From contig CAMCWC010000001.1 of NCBI GenBank assembly GCA_945882415.1, positions 186,001 to 250,000 of the forward strand: 64,000 nucleotides of DNA, given 5' to 3'. Under the pieces are notes generated by a model. The model was not told the origin of the DNA and did not search any database. It worked only from the letters and a program-made list of their open reading frames with translations. Source of the DNA: Chthonomonas calidirosea. Lineage in GTDB: Bacteria; Armatimonadota; Fimbriimonadia; Fimbriimonadales; Fimbriimonadaceae. Made by a program: the position numbers and the translations under genes. Positions 42,989 through 51,572 of this stretch are shown piece by piece (position 1 is the stretch's first letter; each line of letters opens with the position of its first letter).

Positions 42989-42990
42989 CG

Positions 42991-43377
42991 CTACTGGCCG
43001 GAGTTCGCTCCGGCCACCGGCTTCCGACCCCCGCTCCAAAGCCACGTTCCCGCAGCAAAGTTGAGGATTGAAATGACGGTTAGCGTCAGAACTTCCGTAC
43101 TTGGCAGAAAGGCGGTCGACTGCGAATACGCTGCCACTCCGGCGGTCACCGTGCTGAGCATGAGCAGATCGTAAGCATCAAACCGTTTCCGCTCCTCAAG
43201 GGTGCCGGTTGGAGCGTTGACGAACCGGAATCCAAGATAAACCGGAATCGCAAGGAGCTTCAGCGCGAATCGAATCATCCCTAGATCGATCAAAAGGTTG
43301 TGCGCCAAGACCACAAGCGCAACGAGGATGGCGGGGAGGAGCAAGAGTCTCCAACGGTATTCGGAATAGACAGACAT
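42991..43377 (-). CDS. Small membrane protein, four helices
   Basis: 128 residues with helices LLLLPAILVALVVLAHNLL, FALKLLAIPVYLGFRF, LLMLSTVTAGVAAY and VLTLTVISILNFAAGTWLW. No family recognised. TAAAAT lies 8 nt before ATG. It converges with the DUF1501 gene with no room for a terminator (2 nt apart). Confidence 0.75.
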   Translation of the reverse strand: MSVYSEYRWRLLLLPAILVALVVLAHNLLIDLGMIRFALKLLAIPVYLGFRFVNAPTGTLEERKRFDAYDLLMLSTVTAGVAAYSQSTAFLPSTEVLTLTVISILNFAAGTWLWSGGRKPVAGANSGQ

Positions 43378-43441
43378 AGTTGATTATTTTAGGAAAATTG
43401 CCCTTAGAATCATTGGCGATTCTGACCAAATGCTGAGGTCT

Positions 43442-43492
43442 CTACGCCACGATCCCGAATCGTGGGGATGCCGATGGAGCGGTTCGGCGTAG
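43442..43492. repeat. Nested palindrome, REP-like cruciform
   Basis: Outer arms CTACGCC (43442-43448) and GGCGTAG (43486-43492) enclose CCACGAT (43447-43453), CCCGA and ATCGTGG (43459-43465). It ends 7 nt before the STAND gene stop. It may be an extragenic palindromic element or a transcript end; no second copy was noticed in the window. Confidence 0.45.
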
Positions 43493-43498
43493 CGTGGA

Positions 43499-46400
43499 TC
43501 ATCCGCGAGGCGGGTTGATGGCGGCTTCCGCGTCTTCGAGTTCGGGCAGACGGCGGCCATAACCGTGTTTCTCGATCAGGCGCCTTGCGTCCGCAAGGTC
43601 CTGCTGTGGAGTGCGCGGGGTGCCGTCAGGATCGGTGAAAGGATAATTGGTTTCGCGGAAGAAGAGGCGGGAGCGATACAAATGAATGTCCGCCAGGTAG
43701 AGCGGCATCGGCCCGCGGGCGGCGATTTCCCAGGCTTCATCGAGGTCGCTCTGCGCGCTCTCGAGGCCGGTGCGCTGGCCGGTGAGACTCCGTTGCCAGG
43801 CGCGGGTAAGCAGGGCGGGGACTAGGAGTTCCTGGTGCCCGGCGCTGCGGATGCCGGAGACAGCGACGGCAATTTCCTTGGTTGCGGCTTGCAGCGCGGC
43901 CGTAAGGCCGGTTCGGCCAGCGCGGTCAATCGTGTCCCCCTGGTCGTTCCGGGGGCGAAGCGGAGAAAACTCCGCGCTCTGTTCCAGGATCGCTGTGTAG
44001 AGCGCGGCGCGCCCCAGGGTGAGGTGGGAAAGCGCGATATCGAGGAGCCAGTTGTTGCTCTTGGCAATCGGGAGCATCTGCGTCGCGCGCCGGGAGGCTG
44101 CGCGGCACTGCTCCAGCCATCCGTCATTCGGCGTTCGGCCGCCGACCTTCCCACTGGCCCGCTCCGCCTGCATCATGAGCAGGTCGCAATACCTGAAGCT
44201 CGAAACCGAGTACAGTCGCGGGAAGTTTGGCCGGCGCTCGGCCTGCATCCGCTCGGCCTCGCGGAAGAGTGCCTCCGATTCGGCTCGGCCGCCCGCCTGG
44301 CTGAGGGCATTGGCAAGGGACGCGCGCTTGCTCGACCGCTGAAAAGCATCGCCGCTCAGGTCTGCATAGATCACGGTCTGCTTGAAGTCCCGCACTGCCT
44401 CGGCGACGTCGCCCAGCAACAGCTCCAGATCGCTCAGGTTACTGTAGCCGATGGACGCACTTAGCCAATCCTCTGCTTTGACGGCCATCTCGAAAGACAC
44501 GCGCAACGGATCGAGGGCCTCGGTCAACCGCCCCAAGGCGCGCAGGCAGAAGGCTGCTTCGCCCAGCAACCAAGATTGGGCTGCTTCCGTGAGTGCCGGC
44601 GAGATGCGGCTCCACGGAGTCTCGAAGAAGCAGGCGATGGCGCCCAAGTCGGAACCGTATGCGCCGAGTTTCCTCGTGCTGTAAATTTCTTTTCCACGCC
44701 GAACGCGGTAGGAGAAAACCGTGTCACACGCGTGTTGCTGCAAGCCCGCCTGGCAACCGTGGGCTACGGCTTGGTAGAGCGGCTGGAGGTCTTCGAGGGT
44801 GGCGTCGGGCTTGTCCTCCGTTCTCGCGCAGAGGTGTTCGTAGAGCCGACGGTGCGCCGCCTTCCAGGCCTCGGGCTGCTGCGTACGGAGCTTCGTCGCG
44901 AAGTATTCCCGCAGCAGCGGATGGGCATCCAGCCCGCCGTCGGCCTGCACGGTAACGAGATTGATTTCCGCTAGTCGGTTCGTGATGACCTTCCAATCAC
45001 GTTGTTCAAGCCCGACGAGTGGCCCGGTCAGTTCGTCGATGGCGGGCGCTTTGACCAGGGCGTCGAGGCAATCCTTTGAGGCGGGTCGATCGAAGAGCCC
45101 GAGCAACCGCAAGATCGCTAGATGGCGTTGGCCCCGCTCGTCCTCGCGCTGGAACCAATTCTCGTAGGCTTCGATTGCTTTGAAGGCGTGACCGTAGGGG
45201 CGGGTGGCGTCGTTTTTGTACTCGTGGTCTGCATCGGCCAGGCGCACGGTGTCGCGCTTACGAATGTCGCCGTCTTCCGCGAGCCACAGATATTGTCCGA
45301 GTAATTGCAGGGTGAGGCCGTGGCCGCGTACTTCGCGGCTTGCGGTTTGGAGTTCCTTGTCGTCCTTTGCAATGGCGCTGGCCCCAGCGCGCGTCGCTCC
45401 GTGATGATGCAACAGGGCCGCGCCGGCGAGGTCAGTGAGCGCGGTGAGTGCCAGGTCGGCGGCGGTGCGTCCGTAGTGCTGCTGGATGTCCGGGACTTTT
45501 TCCCGCGTGGTCACGACGCACAGCCCGGCGTTCTGGGCGGCGAGTCCTTTAAGCAGGGCTTCGATGGCCGGGTCCTTGAGCTTGCCCTCCATCGGTCCGG
45601 GCGGATATTGTAGCGGTTCCAGGCCATCAAGCACGAGCAAACAGCGCACTTGACCAACCAGCCGAGCCAGGCGCGCCCCGCGATCCCACGCGGAGCCAAG
45701 CACGGGATCGGGATCGCCAAAAGCCGTGAGCGCGGCGGCGATGAAGCTTTCGGCAGAAGCGGCACTCTGGTCGTTGGTTCCCTGGCTATAGAAAGACCAA
45801 TCGAAGATGCGCTCGGCACCACGCCAGTTTTTCAGCGCGAGCTCGGCCATCCAGGTGGCGACGACGGAAGTCTTCCCCATGCCGCCGAAGGCGCGTATGA
45901 TGACGACGTTGTTGTGCGAATCATTCCACGCGGCATCGAGCCGGGCGAGGTCTTCGTCGCGACCGATCAACCGCTCGGCGGCGTGGGGGAGCTTGGTTGC
46001 GGAGACGTCGATGGTTGTCTCCAGTCGAGGCAGGATCTCCACGAGGTCACGGAGAACGGCGGAGCTGAGACGCTCCTCGTTAAGGAACGGGCCGCGGTCG
46101 TGACCAAGCGCGCTGATGCGCGCGTAGTGCTCCTTTTGCGATTTCTCCTCGTCCGCACTGAAGACGAACCGATGTGCGCGCGGGACATCTAGCACAGCTA
46201 GATCGAAGTCCGTGGGGCGATACACGAAGAGCTTACGCTGGTGATAGATGGCTAAGTAGGCTTCCCATTGCGTGTAAGAAAAGCCGGGCTGCGGCTCCGC
46301 GAGAAGCGGTGCGAGCGGCGGGAGTTTTTCGGCAAAGTCGGGATATCTTGTCAGCAACGCGGCGACCGCATGCTCTTCTGCCACAGCTCCGGTTGCCTTG

Positions 46401-46597
46401 CCGATGAGGTGGATGATGCCATCGCAGGCCCGGATGTAGTCGTCAAGCTTCTCCAACGTGCTTGCGCCGGTGACGATGAAGTCTTCCTGCACGGCGACAT
46501 CTAAGGTGGGACGCTTGAGGTCCTTCGTCAGCAATTCGCGGTAGGCGAGGAATTCGCTGCTGACCGTAGACAGGAAAAGTTTCTTGTTACCAGTCAT
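43499..46597 (-). CDS. DUF4062 - STAND NTPase - TPR protein (NLR-like)
   Basis: 1032 residues from the ATG at 46597; a TTG at 46624 would add nine. The N-terminal KKLFLSTVSSEF...DGIIHLIGKATG matches DUF4062, a TIR-like flavodoxin fold. The STAND NTPase has Walker A FGGMGKTS (238-243), Walker B CLLVLDGLEP (about 320-328), sensor VVTTREKVP and a GLTLQLLG motif as in NB-ARC (GLPLAL). The C-terminal 450 residues are TPR-like helices (ALRALGRLTEALDPLRVSFEMA, LSQAGGRAESEALFREAERM). The architecture fits an oligomerising sensor-effector. The gene is visibly richer in GC at third positions than its neighbours, suggesting transfer. Confidence 0.88.
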   Translation of the reverse strand: MTGNKKLFLSTVSSEFLAYRELLTKDLKRPTLDVAVQEDFIVTGASTLEKLDDYIRACDGIIHLIGKATGAVAEEHAVAALLTRYPDFAEKLPPLAPLLAEPQPGFSYTQWEAYLAIYHQRKLFVYRPTDFDLAVLDVPRAHRFVFSADEEKSQKEHYARISALGHDRGPFLNEERLSSAVLRDLVEILPRLETTIDVSATKLPHAAERLIGRDEDLARLDAAWNDSHNNVVIIRAFGGMGKTSVVATWMAELALKNWRGAERIFDWSFYSQGTNDQSAASAESFIAAALTAFGDPDPVLGSAWDRGARLARLVGQVRCLLVLDGLEPLQYPPGPMEGKLKDPAIEALLKGLAAQNAGLCVVTTREKVPDIQQHYGRTAADLALTALTDLAGAALLHHHGATRAGASAIAKDDKELQTASREVRGHGLTLQLLGQYLWLAEDGDIRKRDTVRLADADHEYKNDATRPYGHAFKAIEAYENWFQREDERGQRHLAILRLLGLFDRPASKDCLDALVKAPAIDELTGPLVGLEQRDWKVITNRLAEINLVTVQADGGLDAHPLLREYFATKLRTQQPEAWKAAHRRLYEHLCARTEDKPDATLEDLQPLYQAVAHGCQAGLQQHACDTVFSYRVRRGKEIYSTRKLGAYGSDLGAIACFFETPWSRISPALTEAAQSWLLGEAAFCLRALGRLTEALDPLRVSFEMAVKAEDWLSASIGYSNLSDLELLLGDVAEAVRDFKQTVIYADLSGDAFQRSSKRASLANALSQAGGRAESEALFREAERMQAERRPNFPRLYSVSSFRYCDLLMMQAERASGKVGGRTPNDGWLEQCRAASRRATQMLPIAKSNNWLLDIALSHLTLGRAALYTAILEQSAEFSPLRPRNDQGDTIDRAGRTGLTAALQAATKEIAVAVSGIRSAGHQELLVPALLTRAWQRSLTGQRTGLESAQSDLDEAWEIAARGPMPLYLADIHLYRSRLFFRETNYPFTDPDGTPRTPQQDLADARRLIEKHGYGRRLPELEDAEAAINPPRG

Positions 46598-46624
46598 CGC
46601 CGTGGTGCTGGATTGCCCGCTCAA

Positions 46625-47081
46625 TGCCAGGCAACCCGTTGCATGAGATTATCCTATGAAGATGCCTGGACGATGGCAGTTTTGTCCTTTTGCATGTTGC
46701 CATGCTAAACGCCCTGGACGAACTTTCAAACTAGATCAATTTGTGCGCCACTTCACGTTGCTTTGCTCGACTCCTGATGTTCACGGAATCGAAGAGTGTA
46801 CGATTGGCAAAATCGAGGCGTTTCTTCGCTTTAGGCTTTGGTCATACCGACAAATGGGTAACGCTTTCCTTCTGAAGGGAGGGAGGAATCCCATGGAAAG
46901 AGTTTTCTTTGCTTTGAGTTCGGAAAATCCCGCAAGACGGACTACAGGGCACGATCCGTTGGAAGATTGCGGTTCAGAGGTGCTTTCAGCTTAGTCCCGG
47001 CGGCTTTTCGCTGAAGCGGACCTTCTCGAACGGACCGTGAGTGGGTGTAACCCATGTGTCCAATATGGACACACTAAATGC
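46625..47081. other. 457-nt region without a supported gene
   Basis: Lies between the STAND gene and tRNA-Thr. One 112-codon frame (46656-46994, +) lacks a ribosome site and recognisable domains and has an unusual composition, so it is not called. A 7-bp hairpin TGTGTCC/GGACACA at 47055-47073 lies just downstream of the tRNA. It could be the remnant of an older insertion. Confidence 0.5.
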
Positions 47082-47211: not shown

Positions 47212-47958
47212 TCAGATTCCGTTCTTGCGCTGTCGCAGCTTGGCGTTGATCGTGCCGTCGGTGGTCCAAATTCGCGGGAAGAACTGTCCGGTGGCGTTAT
47301 CTCGTCGAGCGCCGGTGATGTAAATCTTGCCTTCGAACGCGAAAGCGACAAACATGCTGTAATCCCAAGATACGTTGGAGTCTCTCGCTTCCCACAGAAT
47401 GGCGCCGGTGTTCTGGTGCCGAATCGTCAGGCTCGGATAGCTTCCGGACTGAGAGTAGTCTTTGACGCGGTTGTGCTCCACATAAACTGGAACTCGGCGG
47501 TCTCGCTTCGTCGCATAAAACGAGCCAGCCTGAAACACATCGGTTTCCTGCGCTTCATTGATGTAGTCAAACTGGGCGGCAGACTGTTCTAGGATCGAAG
47601 TTGTTGTCGAGCGCCAGACCCGGCCGACACTGCGGGAAAAATCGGTGGCGTCTTTGATGCCGATGACCACTGCTTGTCCGTTCTCAAAGAAGGCGGCAAC
47701 CGGGTTGTAATCCCATGCGGCGTTGTTATCTCGGCTCGAGAGAAGGCGAAGGGTCATCGACTTATCCGACCAGACTTCGAGTCCCGGATTGTTGCCCGTA
47801 CCCGTCGCGTCCATATCCGAATCGAAGGTAATGATCGCGTACGGGTAAGTCATGCCGTTGTGCTTGAGCGAGCCAGAAGCAATGGTTTTCGGAACTGCCA
47901 TAGCAACGGCGGATACTAGACAAAACATCGGTAAAAGAAGGGCTCGCATTAGGTTCAC
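47212..47958 (-). CDS. Secreted tandem paralogue A with internal duplication
   Basis: 248 residues. Signal peptide (LLLPMFCLVSAVAMA). The mature protein holds two related units: SRDNNAAWDYNPVAAFFENGQAVVIG and ARDSNVSWDYSMFVAFAFEGKIYITG, each D-N-x-x-W-D-Y-x4-A-F. The C-terminus GARRDNATGQFFPRIWTT is almost identical to that of the second copy. No known family. A 12-nt sequence and a hairpin upstream are shared with the second copy. Confidence 0.8.
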   Translation of the reverse strand: MNLMRALLLPMFCLVSAVAMAVPKTIASGSLKHNGMTYPYAIITFDSDMDATGTGNNPGLEVWSDKSMTLRLLSSRDNNAAWDYNPVAAFFENGQAVVIGIKDATDFSRSVGRVWRSTTTSILEQSAAQFDYINEAQETDVFQAGSFYATKRDRRVPVYVEHNRVKDYSQSGSYPSLTIRHQNTGAILWEARDSNVSWDYSMFVAFAFEGKIYITGARRDNATGQFFPRIWTTDGTINAKLRQRKNGI

Positions 47959-47988
47959 TCCGTTCGAGCAATTTGCTCAAAACTCACG

Positions 47989-48000
47989 GTGATGATCGGC
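47989..48000. repeat. Shared upstream motif GTGATGATCGGC, copy 1
   Basis: Lies 31 nt upstream of the start of paralogue A (on the - strand GCCGATCATCAC), with a GAGCAAATTGCTC hairpin between it and the gene. An identical 12-mer lies upstream of paralogue B. Confidence 0.6.
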
Positions 48001-48074
48001 AGATACTTCTGGAACCTGCAACCGATCTGGAGAAAATCGCCATGGTTGGCCGATTCATTCTGAAAATTCACTCA

Positions 48075-48104
48075 TTATCAGAAGAATTTTCACTTTATCA
48101 GAAG
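48075..48104. repeat. Direct repeat TTATCAGAAG x2 upstream of paralogue A
   Basis: TTATCAGAAG occurs at 48075-48084 and 48095-48104, and the nine-mer TTATCAGAA at 49157-49165 upstream of paralogue B. On the - strand these read TTCTGATAA, where GATAAT or GATAAA could be -10 elements. Confidence 0.55.
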
Positions 48105-48293
48105 GTTCCTACCGGATCACCTTCATTCGGCTTTCGTAAGGTCAGATCAGCTTGGCCGCTCCGTCACTTGAAAGATTCGATTGATCGAACTTACGAAGCG
48201 AAACAGCCAGTGAGTCGTGTTCGGAAATCCGAATGGGGGCGGCACTTCATGTCCACCGCCCCCATTAGTTGGTTTCCGCGTCGTCCGAGAGGA

Positions 48294-49031
48294 CTAACCG
48301 TTCTTCCGCTGCCGAAGGCGACTTCCGACCGCACCTTCGGTGGTCCAGATGCGAGGGAAGAACTGCCCGGTCGCGTTGTCTCTCCGAGCACCCGTAATGT
48401 ACAGTTTTCCTTCGAAAGCAAAAGCTACGAATGCACTGTAATCCCATGTTGCATTGTCGTCCCGAGCCTCAAAGAGAATGGCCCCCGTGACTTCTTCCCG
48501 GACCGTTAGACCAGGGAACGGCCCAACTTGCGCGTAGTCGTCGTTGCGATTGTGCTCAACGTAAGCCGAGAAGCGATCACATCGTTTGTCAACCGGGAAG
48601 AGACCAGCCTGAAAAACGCCGGGTGTCTGCGAGTCATTGAGAAATCCATAATGGGCGGGCGATTGCTTTAGAATGGATCCTCGACTCGAACGCCACACCC
48701 GGCCAGCGCTGACCGAGCCGTCAGCCGCATCGCGAAAGCCAAGCACGACGGCTTGACCGTCTTCGAAGAATGCCGCCTCAGGGAAGTAGTTCCACTGGGC
48801 ATTGTCATCCTTGCTACTCATAAGGCGCTTTTTCAGGGACTTATCGGCCCAGACTTCGATTCCAGGGTTTGTGCCGACCGCAGAATCGTCGAGCTCGAAG
48901 TCATAAGTGATGACCGCGCGCTCGTACGTCTTTCCGCCGAACTCCAGCTCACCTTTCGCAATGATCTCCGGAGCCGCCATGGCCGCCGACGAAACGACGC
49001 TTAACAACACTAAAAGAACTGGTCTCTTCAT
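48294..49031 (-). CDS. Secreted tandem paralogue B with internal duplication
   Basis: 245 residues. Signal peptide (VLLVLLSVVSSAAMAA) then the same two-unit arrangement as paralogue A: SKDDNAQWNYFPEAAFFEDGQAVVLG and ARDDNATWDYSAFVAFAFEGKLYITG. C-terminus GARRDNATGQFFPRIWTTEG. About half identical to paralogue A by eye over the whole length and higher at the end. Distance between copies is 335 nt, with no shared gene, so this is a duplication. Confidence 0.8.
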   Translation of the reverse strand: MKRPVLLVLLSVVSSAAMAAPEIIAKGELEFGGKTYERAVITYDFELDDSAVGTNPGIEVWADKSLKKRLMSSKDDNAQWNYFPEAAFFEDGQAVVLGFRDAADGSVSAGRVWRSSRGSILKQSPAHYGFLNDSQTPGVFQAGLFPVDKRCDRFSAYVEHNRNDDYAQVGPFPGLTVREEVTGAILFEARDDNATWDYSAFVAFAFEGKLYITGARRDNATGQFFPRIWTTEGAVGSRLRQRKNG

Positions 49032-49195: not shown

Positions 49196-50269
49196 TTACA
49201 ATGCCCCTAACGCAAAGGCATCAAGCTGCGTTTCGGAGAAACGATAGCGGGGAATATCCCCCGGTCCAAAGTTGAGCTCAACCAACGGACGAATAACCTG
49301 CTCCGTCACCACCGAGTCCGCTAGCTCCTTCCGAAGAGAGGCCATCTGCAGCAGCATCACCTGCAAGTGCACCTTTCCCAGGGCCAGCGATCCCACCCGC
49401 CGGCCTTCATCCGTCGTCAACGTTTGGCCAAGGATGCAGCGAGCAATTTCGCGGTTGTGAAAATCAATCGCGTCGATAAAGCCGGTCGAAGCGGTTGTAT
49501 CACCCCCAATCGCCGAGACCTCGAACTCCTTTGGAAACACCATCGCTCCCGAATTCGCCAGTTGAGAAAGGCTTCGAAACAGGGAGTCCGTCTCGTCTGC
49601 GGAGACCGTCCGGTCAAATCGCCCCAGCATGGTGGGCGAAGCAAACCGCTCCAAGTGCACTCGCCAGCCTTCAATCAGACCCCGCTTAGCCTGCCAGTGC
49701 GTCCGAGCCGCCTCAAGGTCGGACCGTCCTTTCGGCATTGCCGGCGAGGTCCGGTAGCGGTAGATCACAAACTTTTCCTTTGGCAAATCTTGCTCGGGCT
49801 CGCCCGGAAACTGAAGGTGAAGTCCGTCCAAGCGACCGAAAGAATCCATGTTCAGACCAAACAAGCTTGCGTTCTTCGGCCGCACCGCGTCGAGCCAAAC
49901 CCCATCTGCATCCGTGGAGAACACTAACTCCTGCACGCTCCAGCCTTTGGCGAACGCATCCATCGCGGCGTAAAGAACCTGCTCCACGCTGCCCTCCATT
50001 CGTTCAAAAGCCCGCTGAACAAACTCCAGAATCCGCGCCGCGCGAGCCGAATTGTTGGCTGGAACAAGTTCTGCCGGAGCGGCCAGGACTCCCAATTTCT
50101 TGACTTGCAGCGCGGTTTGCACCATCGAGTCCAATTCCATTTGGTCATAAACCAAGGTGCTCGGTAGACCCGGCATCTTAGCGATCCTTCGGTCGCTCAG
50201 GGTGAGTTGAGCCGCGACTTCGGCGGGCGTTGACGATTTCGAAACGAGATTTTTGAGCCAGTTAAGCAT
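49196..50269 (-). CDS. Phage Mu-type portal protein (DUF935-like)
   Basis: 357 residues from the ATG at 50269. LDSMVQTALQVKKLGVLAAPAELVPANN, VEQVLYAAMDAFAKGWSVQELVF, and GWRVHLERFASPTMLGRFD are characteristic of DUF935 portal proteins, the dodecameric DNA gate of the capsid. TGQTLTTDEGRRVGSLALG-like core includes LGQTLTTDEGRRVGS. It overlaps the terminase by 8 nt. No head or tail genes follow within the window. Confidence 0.88.
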   Translation of the reverse strand: MLNWLKNLVSKSSTPAEVAAQLTLSDRRIAKMPGLPSTLVYDQMELDSMVQTALQVKKLGVLAAPAELVPANNSARAARILEFVQRAFERMEGSVEQVLYAAMDAFAKGWSVQELVFSTDADGVWLDAVRPKNASLFGLNMDSFGRLDGLHLQFPGEPEQDLPKEKFVIYRYRTSPAMPKGRSDLEAARTHWQAKRGLIEGWRVHLERFASPTMLGRFDRTVSADETDSLFRSLSQLANSGAMVFPKEFEVSAIGGDTTASTGFIDAIDFHNREIARCILGQTLTTDEGRRVGSLALGKVHLQVMLLQMASLRKELADSVVTEQVIRPLVELNFGPGDIPRYRFSETQLDAFALGAL

Positions 50270-51539
50270 AGGAAAATTGGATCTTTGGAGCAAGGCGGAT
50301 GCAGCCGCTGAGTCGGGAAGGGAGGTGGCGCGCCGCGAGCATCACGGCGGTCACGAGGTCGTCGTGCTCCGACCCTTTGGCGCCGTAGCGGATGTTTCCC
50401 GCGGAGGTTTCGGAGGAAACATAACTCGCGAGTTCGCGTTCTAGGACCGGGTTTGGCTGCATTCGCAGGAGCTTGTTGCCCAGCAGCCGCGCCAAAGCGC
50501 AAACCATCTCCTCCTTTCCGCCCGAAGTGAAGGTGATGTCGGTGATCGAGAAGCGGGGCAGTTGACTTCGCAAAAGCTCGGCGGCAATAACGCCAAGCCC
50601 CGTGCTGTCCTGAAAGATGCGCGCTCCGGGATACCGCCGAATCACTTCGACCACTTGCGCACAAATGTCCTGAAAGTGCGGACCGTGAAAGCGCGCTAGG
50701 CCGACCAGCCAACATTCGTCCCTTGTGCCCGAAACGATCGCGACCGCGGTGAAGTCCTTCGTCTTCGCCCAGTCCACTCCAATCGTGAATGGACCAGAAA
50801 ACGAGCTTGGCCACTCGTAACAACGGGCATCGTCGATGCTCTCCTGAGTAAAAACCGCCCCCGCCGCCTCGCGAAACACTGCTTCGTACTCGACTTCAAA
50901 ACTGCGCGGCGAAGACTCGTTCTTCTTTGCCGCCAGAAAGTGACGAGAAACCCGAGGGTTCTCCGAGCTTGGCGATCGTCGAGACCAAATTCCGTCCTCG
51001 CCTCTCTCGCCGCGGTCGAAAAGTCGCCAAAACCAGTTGAACCCGTTCGGCGTGCTGATGCAAGTCAGGTACCCGTCGGTCGTCGAGAGCATCGGCGTCA
51101 ACACCTCCGTCACCAAGGCTTCGGGGACGAAAGCTGCTTCATCCACGATCACATGGTCCGCTTCGTCGCCGCGCAAACTGTCTGGCGCATGGCCCGACCG
51201 CGCGGTAACCACGTGCCCCTCAAACTCCAGCACCGGAAACGGCGTGTTCTTGGGGCGGTACTTCGTGATGTCCTTGGTGACTTTTCGCTGGTAATCATCG
51301 AGCAATCGGCAAACCCGTCGAAACAGGATTTTCGCCTGCTCCAGGGTTGGTGCGACCATCAGCTGCCGGCTCGGCGGTGACCGGAGAATTCGGTGCAGCA
51401 CGTCCACCGCACAAGCCTCCGTTTTGCCCCACCTTCGCCCGCAGGCCAGGGCACGAGTCTTTGCATGGGCAAGGAGAAATTCACGCTGCCCAACGTGCGG
51501 TTGCCAAATGCCGGCAATCCGCTGAAGAAACTGTTCCAT
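50262..51539 (-). CDS. Phage terminase large subunit
   Basis: 425 residues from the ATG at 51539, preceded by TAGGAG. The ATPase part has Walker A GRRWGKTE (34-41) and Walker B HVIVDEAAF; the nuclease part has IGVDWAKTKDFTA with the metal Asp, QDSTGLGV and GSEHDDLVTAVMLA. This is the motor that packages DNA. The only phage-like companion in the window is the portal gene. All key motifs are intact, which argues for conservation rather than decay. Confidence 0.92.
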   Translation of the reverse strand: MEQFLQRIAGIWQPHVGQREFLLAHAKTRALACGRRWGKTEACAVDVLHRILRSPPSRQLMVAPTLEQAKILFRRVCRLLDDYQRKVTKDITKYRPKNTPFPVLEFEGHVVTARSGHAPDSLRGDEADHVIVDEAAFVPEALVTEVLTPMLSTTDGYLTCISTPNGFNWFWRLFDRGERGEDGIWSRRSPSSENPRVSRHFLAAKKNESSPRSFEVEYEAVFREAAGAVFTQESIDDARCYEWPSSFSGPFTIGVDWAKTKDFTAVAIVSGTRDECWLVGLARFHGPHFQDICAQVVEVIRRYPGARIFQDSTGLGVIAAELLRSQLPRFSITDITFTSGGKEEMVCALARLLGNKLLRMQPNPVLERELASYVSSETSAGNIRYGAKGSEHDDLVTAVMLAARHLPSRLSGCIRLAPKIQFSYA

Positions 51540-51572
51540 ATCTCCTAGCGAAAGAAGATCGAAAAAGGTCAA

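What the first reader, a model, noticed from the sequence alone, without database searches (positions are those of the whole stretch)
43499..46597. NLR-like protein: DUF4062 effector-type domain, STAND NTPase and TPR sensor in a single gene
The layout (N-terminal TIR-like DUF4062 domain, Walker A FGGMGKTS, Walker B LLVLDGLEP, a GLTLQLLG motif, then about 450 residues of TPR-like helices) matches STAND sensor proteins, a group that includes antiphage Avs-type and other NLR-like systems. The gene stands alone, is flanked by gene-poor sequence on one side and a nested palindrome on the other, and appears richer in GC than its neighbours. What DUF4062 does as an effector is not established to my knowledge.
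Basis: partly seen in the sequence, partly recalled or inferred. Interest (0 to 1): 0.72.

Follow-up and report, generated by a model that had tools for sequence, protein, structure and literature searches.

The report
Bacterial NLR-like suicide receptor with TIR-like effector
This single bacterial gene encodes a three-part alarm protein (a TIR-like NAD-destroying domain, an ATP-driven switch and a helical sensor) that has spread sideways between distant phyla and probably kills the infected cell to stop a virus, in the same layout as human TEP1 and NPHP3.

Summary
In detail: one intact 1032-codon gene (43499-46597, minus) with a diverged DUF4062 domain, a STAND NTPase and a TPR superhelix. 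AlphaFold2/Foldseek give a TIR/NDT-like fold for residues 1-190 and PH0952/Apaf-1/MalT as nearest folds for the whole chain. The putative catalytic Glu (E112, SYTQWE) is invariant in all eight DUF4062-bearing relatives and aligns with the invariant Glu of undisputed DUF4062 domains. Relatives at 60-74% identity lie in five other phyla; none of 290 other genomes of the window's own phylum has one above 46%. Across 54 related loci the NTPase-TPR core is kept while the N-terminus is exchanged for TIR, SEFIR, nuclease, cyclase or HNH domains; DUF4062 was recruited at least twice (AU p=3e-6). The sensors are reshuffled independently of the NTPases (AU p=0.0009) and evolve faster. In the sister species the same interval, from the upstream gene's stop to the tRNA-Thr 3' end, holds a TaqI/Eco57I-type methyltransferase. 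Best explanation: an NLR-like abortive-infection receptor that depletes NAD+. The trigger is unknown and no activity was tested.

The parts
43499..46597 (-). complete gene, 1032 aa: DUF4062-like domain, STAND NTPase, TPR sensor
46028..46597 (-). residues 1-190: diverged DUF4062 / TIR-like effector domain
   Evidence: Pfam DUF4062 E=0.0012, below cut-off; hhalign to 11 clear DUF4062 domains prob 97.6, E 3.9e-12; AF2 model pLDDT 78.8, Foldseek TIR and nucleoside N-glycosidase folds
46262..46264 (-). E112, putative catalytic Glu of the NADase (motif SYTQWE)
   Evidence: invariant in 8 of 8 DUF4062-bearing relatives; aligned with the invariant Glu of clear DUF4062 domains; the solved KpSwz chain reads SFTEKA at the equivalent motif, consistent with its E97A mutation (numbering inferred)
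44879..45985 (-). residues 205-573: STAND nucleotide-binding, helical and winged-helix region
45866..45889 (-). Walker A FGGMGKTS (residues 237-244)
   Evidence: G239, G241, K242 invariant in 37 sequences
45617..45640 (-). Walker B LLVLDGLE (residues 320-327)
   Evidence: D324 and E327 invariant in 37 sequences
45296..45319 (-). GLTLQLLG motif (residues 427-434), position of the GxP/GLPLAL motif of STAND proteins
   Evidence: H426 and G434 invariant; motif identity from general knowledge of STAND proteins
44900..44923 (-). HPLLREYF (residues 559-566) in the winged-helix region, possible MHD-like histidine
   Evidence: H559, P560, R563 invariant in 37 sequences; MHD equivalence is inference
43517..44875 (-). 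residues 575-1027: TPR-like superhelix, putative sensor
   Evidence: AF2 helices at pLDDT about 90; pairwise dN/dS about 0.29-0.53 against about 0.09-0.17 for the nucleotide-binding domain
42989..47081 (.). variable interval between the DUF1501 stop codon and the tRNA-Thr 3' end; in the sister genome it holds a TaqI/Eco57I-type methyltransferase and a neighbouring PD-(D/E)XK-like ORF

Best explanation
A one-gene, NLR-like immune receptor acting by abortive infection. At rest the TPR superhelix holds the STAND NTPase closed and monomeric. When the TPR arm binds an invader product, most likely a phage structural or packaging protein, the NTPase exchanges nucleotide and oligomerises. That clusters the N-terminal DUF4062 (TIR-like) domains, which then hydrolyse NAD+ (predicted catalytic Glu E112), and the cell stops growing or dies before phage release. 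Shown here: architecture, motifs, predicted folds, effector exchange in relatives, sensor reshuffling, horizontal spread and replacement in the sister genome. Inferred: NADase activity of this protein, oligomerisation, phage as the trigger, death as the outcome.
For: Residues 1-190 match clear DUF4062 domains by profile (prob 97.6, E 3.9e-12) and take a TIR / nucleoside N-glycosidase fold, with the Glu conserved. DUF4062 is an experimentally shown TIR-like NADase that drives antiphage abortive infection in Swarozyc and is active in human TEP1, next to a NACHT domain (PMC13174449). The whole-chain model is nearest to STAND-TPR PH0952 (E 3.7e-11), Apaf-1, plant NRC resistosomes, CED-4 and MalT. 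In 54 related loci the core is kept and the N-terminus exchanged: of 38 N-termini scanned, 20 match TIR_2, 8 SEFIR, 5 ThsB and 2 CAP12-TIR (overlapping hits), plus cyclase, HNH and SMEK; several match PADLOC effectors of CBASS, Thoeris and bSEFIR systems. At least 12 effector changes on the core tree, with DUF4062 recruited at least twice (AU p=3.3e-6). Horizontal transfer: 60-74% identity in Verrucomicrobiota, Myxococcota, Planctomycetota, Acidobacteriota and Pseudomonadota, but none above 46% among the other genomes of the own phylum. The sister species carries a methyltransferase/nuclease-like pair in the same interval. The sensor evolves faster than the NTPase and is recombined between family members.
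Against: No activity or phage phenotype was tested. Pfam scores for DUF4062 and NACHT are below curated cut-offs. Three human DUF4062-NACHT proteins (NWD1, NWD2, NPHP3) showed no NADase activity (PMC13174449), so a conserved fold does not guarantee catalysis. Neighbours of the seven closest relatives are not clearly enriched in defence genes (no control set was run). No relatives were found in phage records or viral contigs and only one weak plasmid match. Some relatives carry nucleotide cyclase domains, which also fit signalling.
Confidence: 0.68

Rival explanations
1. A STAND signalling or transcription-type regulator (as MalT or AfsR) that senses a metabolite or stress through its TPRs, with the DUF4062 domain making a nucleotide signal or binding a partner instead of killing the cell.
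For: MalT (8bob) and AfsR are among the structural or sequence neighbours; three relatives carry adenylate/guanylate-cyclase-like N-termini.
Against: Most exchanged N-termini are TIR/SEFIR or nuclease-like domains shared with CBASS, Thoeris and bSEFIR systems; no DNA-binding output domain was found; the gene is patchy and horizontally acquired, unlike a core regulator.
Confidence: 0.13
2. NLR-like defence receptor whose DUF4062 domain is catalytically silent or makes a signal molecule, acting as an adaptor that recruits another effector (compare human NWD1, NWD2 and NPHP3, which lacked activity).
For: Three of four human DUF4062-NACHT proteins lacked NADase activity (PMC13174449); this DUF4062 domain is diverged, with an insert of about 28 residues before the Glu motif compared with clear DUF4062 domains.
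Against: The SYTxxE motif is invariant in all eight DUF4062-bearing relatives, and the domain is under strong purifying selection (dN/dS about 0.06-0.16 where estimable). No conserved partner gene is evident beside the window gene.
Confidence: 0.13
3. A decaying, non-functional horizontally acquired gene.
For: It occurs in one genome only in its genus, and no phenotype is known.
Against: Intact 1032-codon ORF, all catalytic and switch motifs retained, low dN/dS in the effector and NTPase parts.
Confidence: 0.04

Closest known systems
Swarozyc (KpSwz; PMC13174449)
   Same: N-terminal DUF4062 TIR-like domain with the conserved Glu; single gene; horizontally spread
   Different: Swarozyc has a short HTH/winged AUX domain that binds the phage portal directly (solved chain 326 residues); here the sensor side is a STAND NTPase plus a TPR superhelix, so activation should be nucleotide-gated oligomerisation
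Human TEP1, NWD1/2, NPHP3 (DUF4062-NACHT; PMC13174449)
   Same: DUF4062 next to a STAND/NACHT NTPase followed by a helical or repeat C-terminus
   Different: Bacterial stand-alone gene; TPR rather than WD40 repeats (TEP1, NWD1/2); direct sequence relationship of the NTPases was not tested
Avs / AVAST and bNACHT antiviral STAND systems
   Same: Tripartite effector - STAND - C-terminal sensor layout; Avs sensors bind conserved phage proteins (as summarised in PMC10907252)
   Different: No PADLOC model matches this protein; the effector is a DUF4062-like domain; NACHT score just below cut-off
STAND-TPR protein PH0952 (6mfv)
   Same: Best fold match of the whole chain (E 3.7e-11): STAND module with TPR sensor
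   Different: 12% identity; its chain of 641 residues is much shorter than the 1032 here
FxSxx-COOH system TPR protein FxsT (Methylobacterium plasmid)
   Same: 34.7% identity over residues 6-249, the only plasmid match
   Different: Match ends in the nucleotide-binding domain; the sensor is not related at this sensitivity

Membership tests
STAND NTPase | Walker A and hhhhDxxE-type Walker B | tested here: met
   FGGMGKTS and LLVLDGLE, key residues invariant in 37 sequences
STAND NTPase | NB - helical - winged-helix module followed by superstructure-forming repeats | tested here: met
   AF2 model pLDDT 84.5; Foldseek PH0952, Apaf-1, CED-4, MalT
STAND NTPase | nucleotide-gated oligomerisation | not testable with these tools
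   no biochemistry
DUF4062 (PF13271) | score at or above Pfam gathering cut-off 24.7 | tested here: not met
   19.4 bits whole protein; 23.6 bits in the genome scan. Closest relative L002 scores 23.7. Described here as a diverged relative of DUF4062, not as a curated member
DUF4062 (PF13271) | profile similarity to clear members with the conserved S-x-T-x-x-E motif | tested here: met
   hhalign prob 97.6, E 3.9e-12, motif aligned
TIR-like fold | five-stranded parallel beta-alpha fold | tested here: met
   model mbc07d605d7ed; BcmB TMt 0.74, IL-1RAcPb TIR TMt 0.60, RPS4/RRS1 TIR TMt 0.56, Foldseek prob 1.00. E-values are modest (about 1e-3) and TM-scores normalised to the query are at most about 0.5
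NADase of TIR type | NAD+ hydrolysis dependent on the Glu | not testable with these tools
   E112 conserved
Swarozyc | DUF4062 plus HTH/winged portal-binding AUX domain | tested here: not met
   C-terminal 830 residues are STAND-TPR
Avs (AVAST) | match to a PADLOC model of known defence proteins, Avs included | tested here: not met
   no PADLOC family at E up to 10
bNACHT | Pfam NACHT above cut-off | tested here: not met
   24.8 bits against 26.7; NACHT-like STAND only
antiphage defence gene | reduces phage plating | not testable with these tools
   none

The most novel reading that the evidence does not exclude
A previously undescribed, two-way modular family of bacterial NLR-like receptors in which one STAND switch is recombined at both ends. 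At the front, effectors are swapped (DUF4062/TEP1-type NADase, TIR, SEFIR, nucleases, cyclases); at the back, fast-evolving TPR sensors are reshuffled between members, including between tandem copies. The window protein would be a bacterial counterpart of the DUF4062-NACHT layout of TEP1 and NPHP3, with DUF4062 recruited at least twice in place of other effectors.
Probability: 0.5. Interest if true: 0.74.

Novelty: new variant of a known kind. Interest (0 to 1): 0.62.

Why it matters
DUF4062 has just been identified as a NADase in a small bacterial system and in the human vault protein TEP1, where activation through the NACHT switch is only speculated. A bacterial protein of about 115 kDa that joins a DUF4062-like domain with its Glu to a STAND switch and a TPR sensor offers a tractable way to test that activation step. 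The family also shows natural exchange of effectors and reshuffling of sensors, which would let one ask whether one sensor can drive many effectors.

Tried and rejected
Foreign origin by GC3: rejected, GC3 lies within the range of neighbours. Integrated island at the tRNA: the variable interval ends exactly at the tRNA-Thr 3' end, but no att-like repeat was found and no integrase was noticed, and family members are not generally near tRNAs (7 tRNAs in 772 kb of loci). Phage or viral carriage: none in phages, none in viral contigs with two queries, one weak plasmid match. Defence-island context of the seven closest relatives: only weak PADLOC hits. Partner gene: the 128-aa ORF downstream (42991-43377) has a degraded relative in the sister genome next to the methyltransferase and none in the relatives' loci, so it is not part of the system. 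Hairpin after the stop: single copy in the genome, probably local. Synteny in other species of the genus: only the sister genome shares the locus, so no true empty site was available.

Full report
1. The gene. Window 43499-46597 (minus) encodes one uninterrupted protein of 1032 aa. The listed ORF could start at a TTG nine codons upstream, but close relatives begin at the ATG at 46597. Pfam finds NACHT (2.3e-5), AAA_16 (4.6e-5), TPR_10 (5.5e-5), TPR_12 (4.5e-4) and DUF4062 (1.2e-3), each below its curated cut-off. PADLOC, NCBIfam and PHROGs find nothing.

2. Effector domain. A profile of residues 1-200 from eight relatives (A3) matches a profile of eleven clear DUF4062 domains from the same phylum with 97.6% probability, E 3.9e-12. 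The SYTQWE motif falls on the invariant S-x-T-x-x-E of DUF4062. An AlphaFold2 model from eight sequences has mean pLDDT 78.8 and a beta-alpha fold of five strands. Foldseek against the PDB ranks TIR domains, TIR-STING, a CMP N-glycosidase (BcmB, TMt 0.74), plant TIR-NLR proteins and a nucleoside deoxyribosyltransferase among its matches; probabilities are near 1, E-values only about 1e-3. The matches are therefore to a fold class. In the solved KpSwz chain the equivalent motif reads SFTEKA, consistent with the published E97A mutant; the residue numbering is inferred and the sequence match to KpSwz is weak, E 1.3. The preprint PMC13174449 shows that DUF4062 hydrolyses NAD+, that this requires the Glu, that it protects E. 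coli by abortive infection and that human TEP1 is an active NADase while NWD1, NWD2 and NPHP3 were not. E112 is invariant in all eight DUF4062-bearing relatives.

3. Switch and sensor. The 1032-residue model built on 37 sequences has mean pLDDT 84.5. Its best solved neighbours are the STAND-TPR protein PH0952 (3.7e-11), Apaf-1, plant NRC proteins, CED-4 and MalT (TMt 0.69). Walker A, Walker B, R365 of the TTR motif, H426/G434 around GLTLQLLG and H559 of HPLLREYF are invariant in 37 sequences. Residues 575-1027 are a run of helical hairpins.

4. Relatives. One scan of 84,980 genomes gave 54 loci. Six share the whole length at about 60-74% identity in Verrucomicrobiota, Myxococcota (two), Planctomycetota, Acidobacteriota and Pseudomonadota; a seventh (L012) shares it at 49% with a different DUF4062 (24% in that domain). 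In the window's own genus one genome of 19 others has even a distant homologue (36%, TIR-like N-terminus), and in 290 other genomes of the phylum the best is 46%, core only. This is a horizontal distribution. The own genome is probably a Fimbriimonas-like member of Armatimonadota; that is my inference from the size of the complete genus member G007 and the gene content, not a tool result.

5. Effectors are exchanged. Of 38 N-termini of core relatives, 20 match TIR_2, 8 SEFIR, 5 ThsB, 2 CAP12-TIR, 2 guanylate cyclase, 1 SMEK and 1 HNH (hits overlap). Single scans confirm TIR, HNH and cyclase cases. PADLOC identifies CBASS-type endonuclease and HNH effectors, bSEFIR and ThsB-type domains among them. 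On a tree of the core, at least 12 changes of effector are needed; DUF4062 appears twice, L012 being sister to a SMEK-fused protein, and a single DUF4062 clade is rejected (p-AU 3.3e-6). Effector labels such as 'SEFIR', 'short' and 'restriction-endonuclease-like' were assigned by me.

6. Sensors are reshuffled. The NTPase parts of the seven closest proteins form one clade (support 99.9), yet their TPR parts do not (p-AU 0.0009). In locus L007 two tandem genes have NTPases from distant clades but sister TPRs (support 99). Pairwise dN/dS is about 0.06-0.16 for the effector (where dS is not saturated), 0.09-0.17 for the nucleotide-binding part and 0.29-0.53 for the TPR part in the six close comparisons. 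dS in the effector part is near saturation and the TPR tree contains long branches, so the exact values are soft; the direction is the same in every pair where it can be computed. Locus L025 has an extra TPR-only ORF beside a complete gene, and L023 has TPR fragments upstream of one.

7. Genomic place. The sister genome G015 (DUF1501 99%, portal 96%, terminase 94% identical proteins) keeps both flanks. Homology stops at the DUF1501 stop codon and resumes at the tRNA-Thr 3' end. In between it has a TaqI/Eco57I-type DNA methyltransferase and an adjacent 243-aa ORF with no Pfam match whose sequence contains a YDLWLDGIRIEVKAS stretch of PD-(D/E)XK type (my reading). So the interval exchanges what look like defence genes. 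No att repeat was found. Next to it lie phage-type portal and terminase genes (49196-51572), conserved in the sister genome.

8. Mechanism. Fold, motifs and family behaviour fit an NLR-like receptor: the TPR arm binds an invader product, the STAND module exchanges nucleotide and oligomerises, and clustered DUF4062 domains hydrolyse NAD+. Steps shown: architecture, conservation, exchange, transfer. Steps inferred: catalysis by this protein, trigger, oligomer, cell death. Rivals are a signalling regulator and a catalytically silent adaptor.

9. Novelty. DUF4062 as an antiphage NADase, STAND receptors with exchangeable effectors (PMC8195603, PMC10907252) and DUF4062-NACHT proteins in animals are known. 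A bacterial DUF4062-STAND-TPR receptor, and a family recombined at both effector and sensor ends, were not found described: the library holds nine papers that mention DUF4062, judged by titles and abstracts apart from the Swarozyc preprint, which was read. Subscription papers and supplements could not be searched. I therefore rate it a new variant of a known kind.

Noticed in passing
window 49196-51572: Mu-type portal (PF06074, 2e-61) and terminase large subunit stand side by side beyond tRNA-Thr and are 94-96% identical in the sister genome, while terminase relatives occur in 9 of 20 genus genomes (own included): a fixed prophage remnant or a domesticated packaging module. Portal proteins trigger Swarozyc, so an interplay is imaginable but untested.
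   Followed up: partly
window 47212-49031: Two paralogous proteins of 248 and 245 aa with signal-peptide-like N-termini and no Pfam or PHROGs match, both present in the sister genome; they share a C-terminal motif (TGQFFPRIWTT.G).
   Followed up: no
L090:3352-5719: Methyltransferase (TaqI_C, Eco57I) plus a 243-aa ORF with a PD-(D/E)XK-like stretch occupy the interval that holds the STAND gene in the window genome.
   Followed up: yes
L007:2752-10850: Tandem family genes whose NTPases belong to distant clades but whose TPR sensors are sisters; one carries a C-terminal cyclase-like stretch, the other a C-terminal glycosyltransferase-like stretch (by eye).
   Followed up: partly
L025:10486-11511: TPR-only ORF related to residues 739-1027 just downstream of a complete family gene with a very diverged TPR, as if a spare sensor segment.
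   Followed up: partly
L022:7344-11708: Family member with an additional C-terminal WD40-like repeat region after the TPRs (by eye), recalling TEP1/NWD1 architectures.
   Followed up: no
G259 (several contigs): One genome of the phylum has 13 DUF4062 matches, many in ORFs of 900-1700 aa: an expanded set of large DUF4062 proteins.
   Followed up: no
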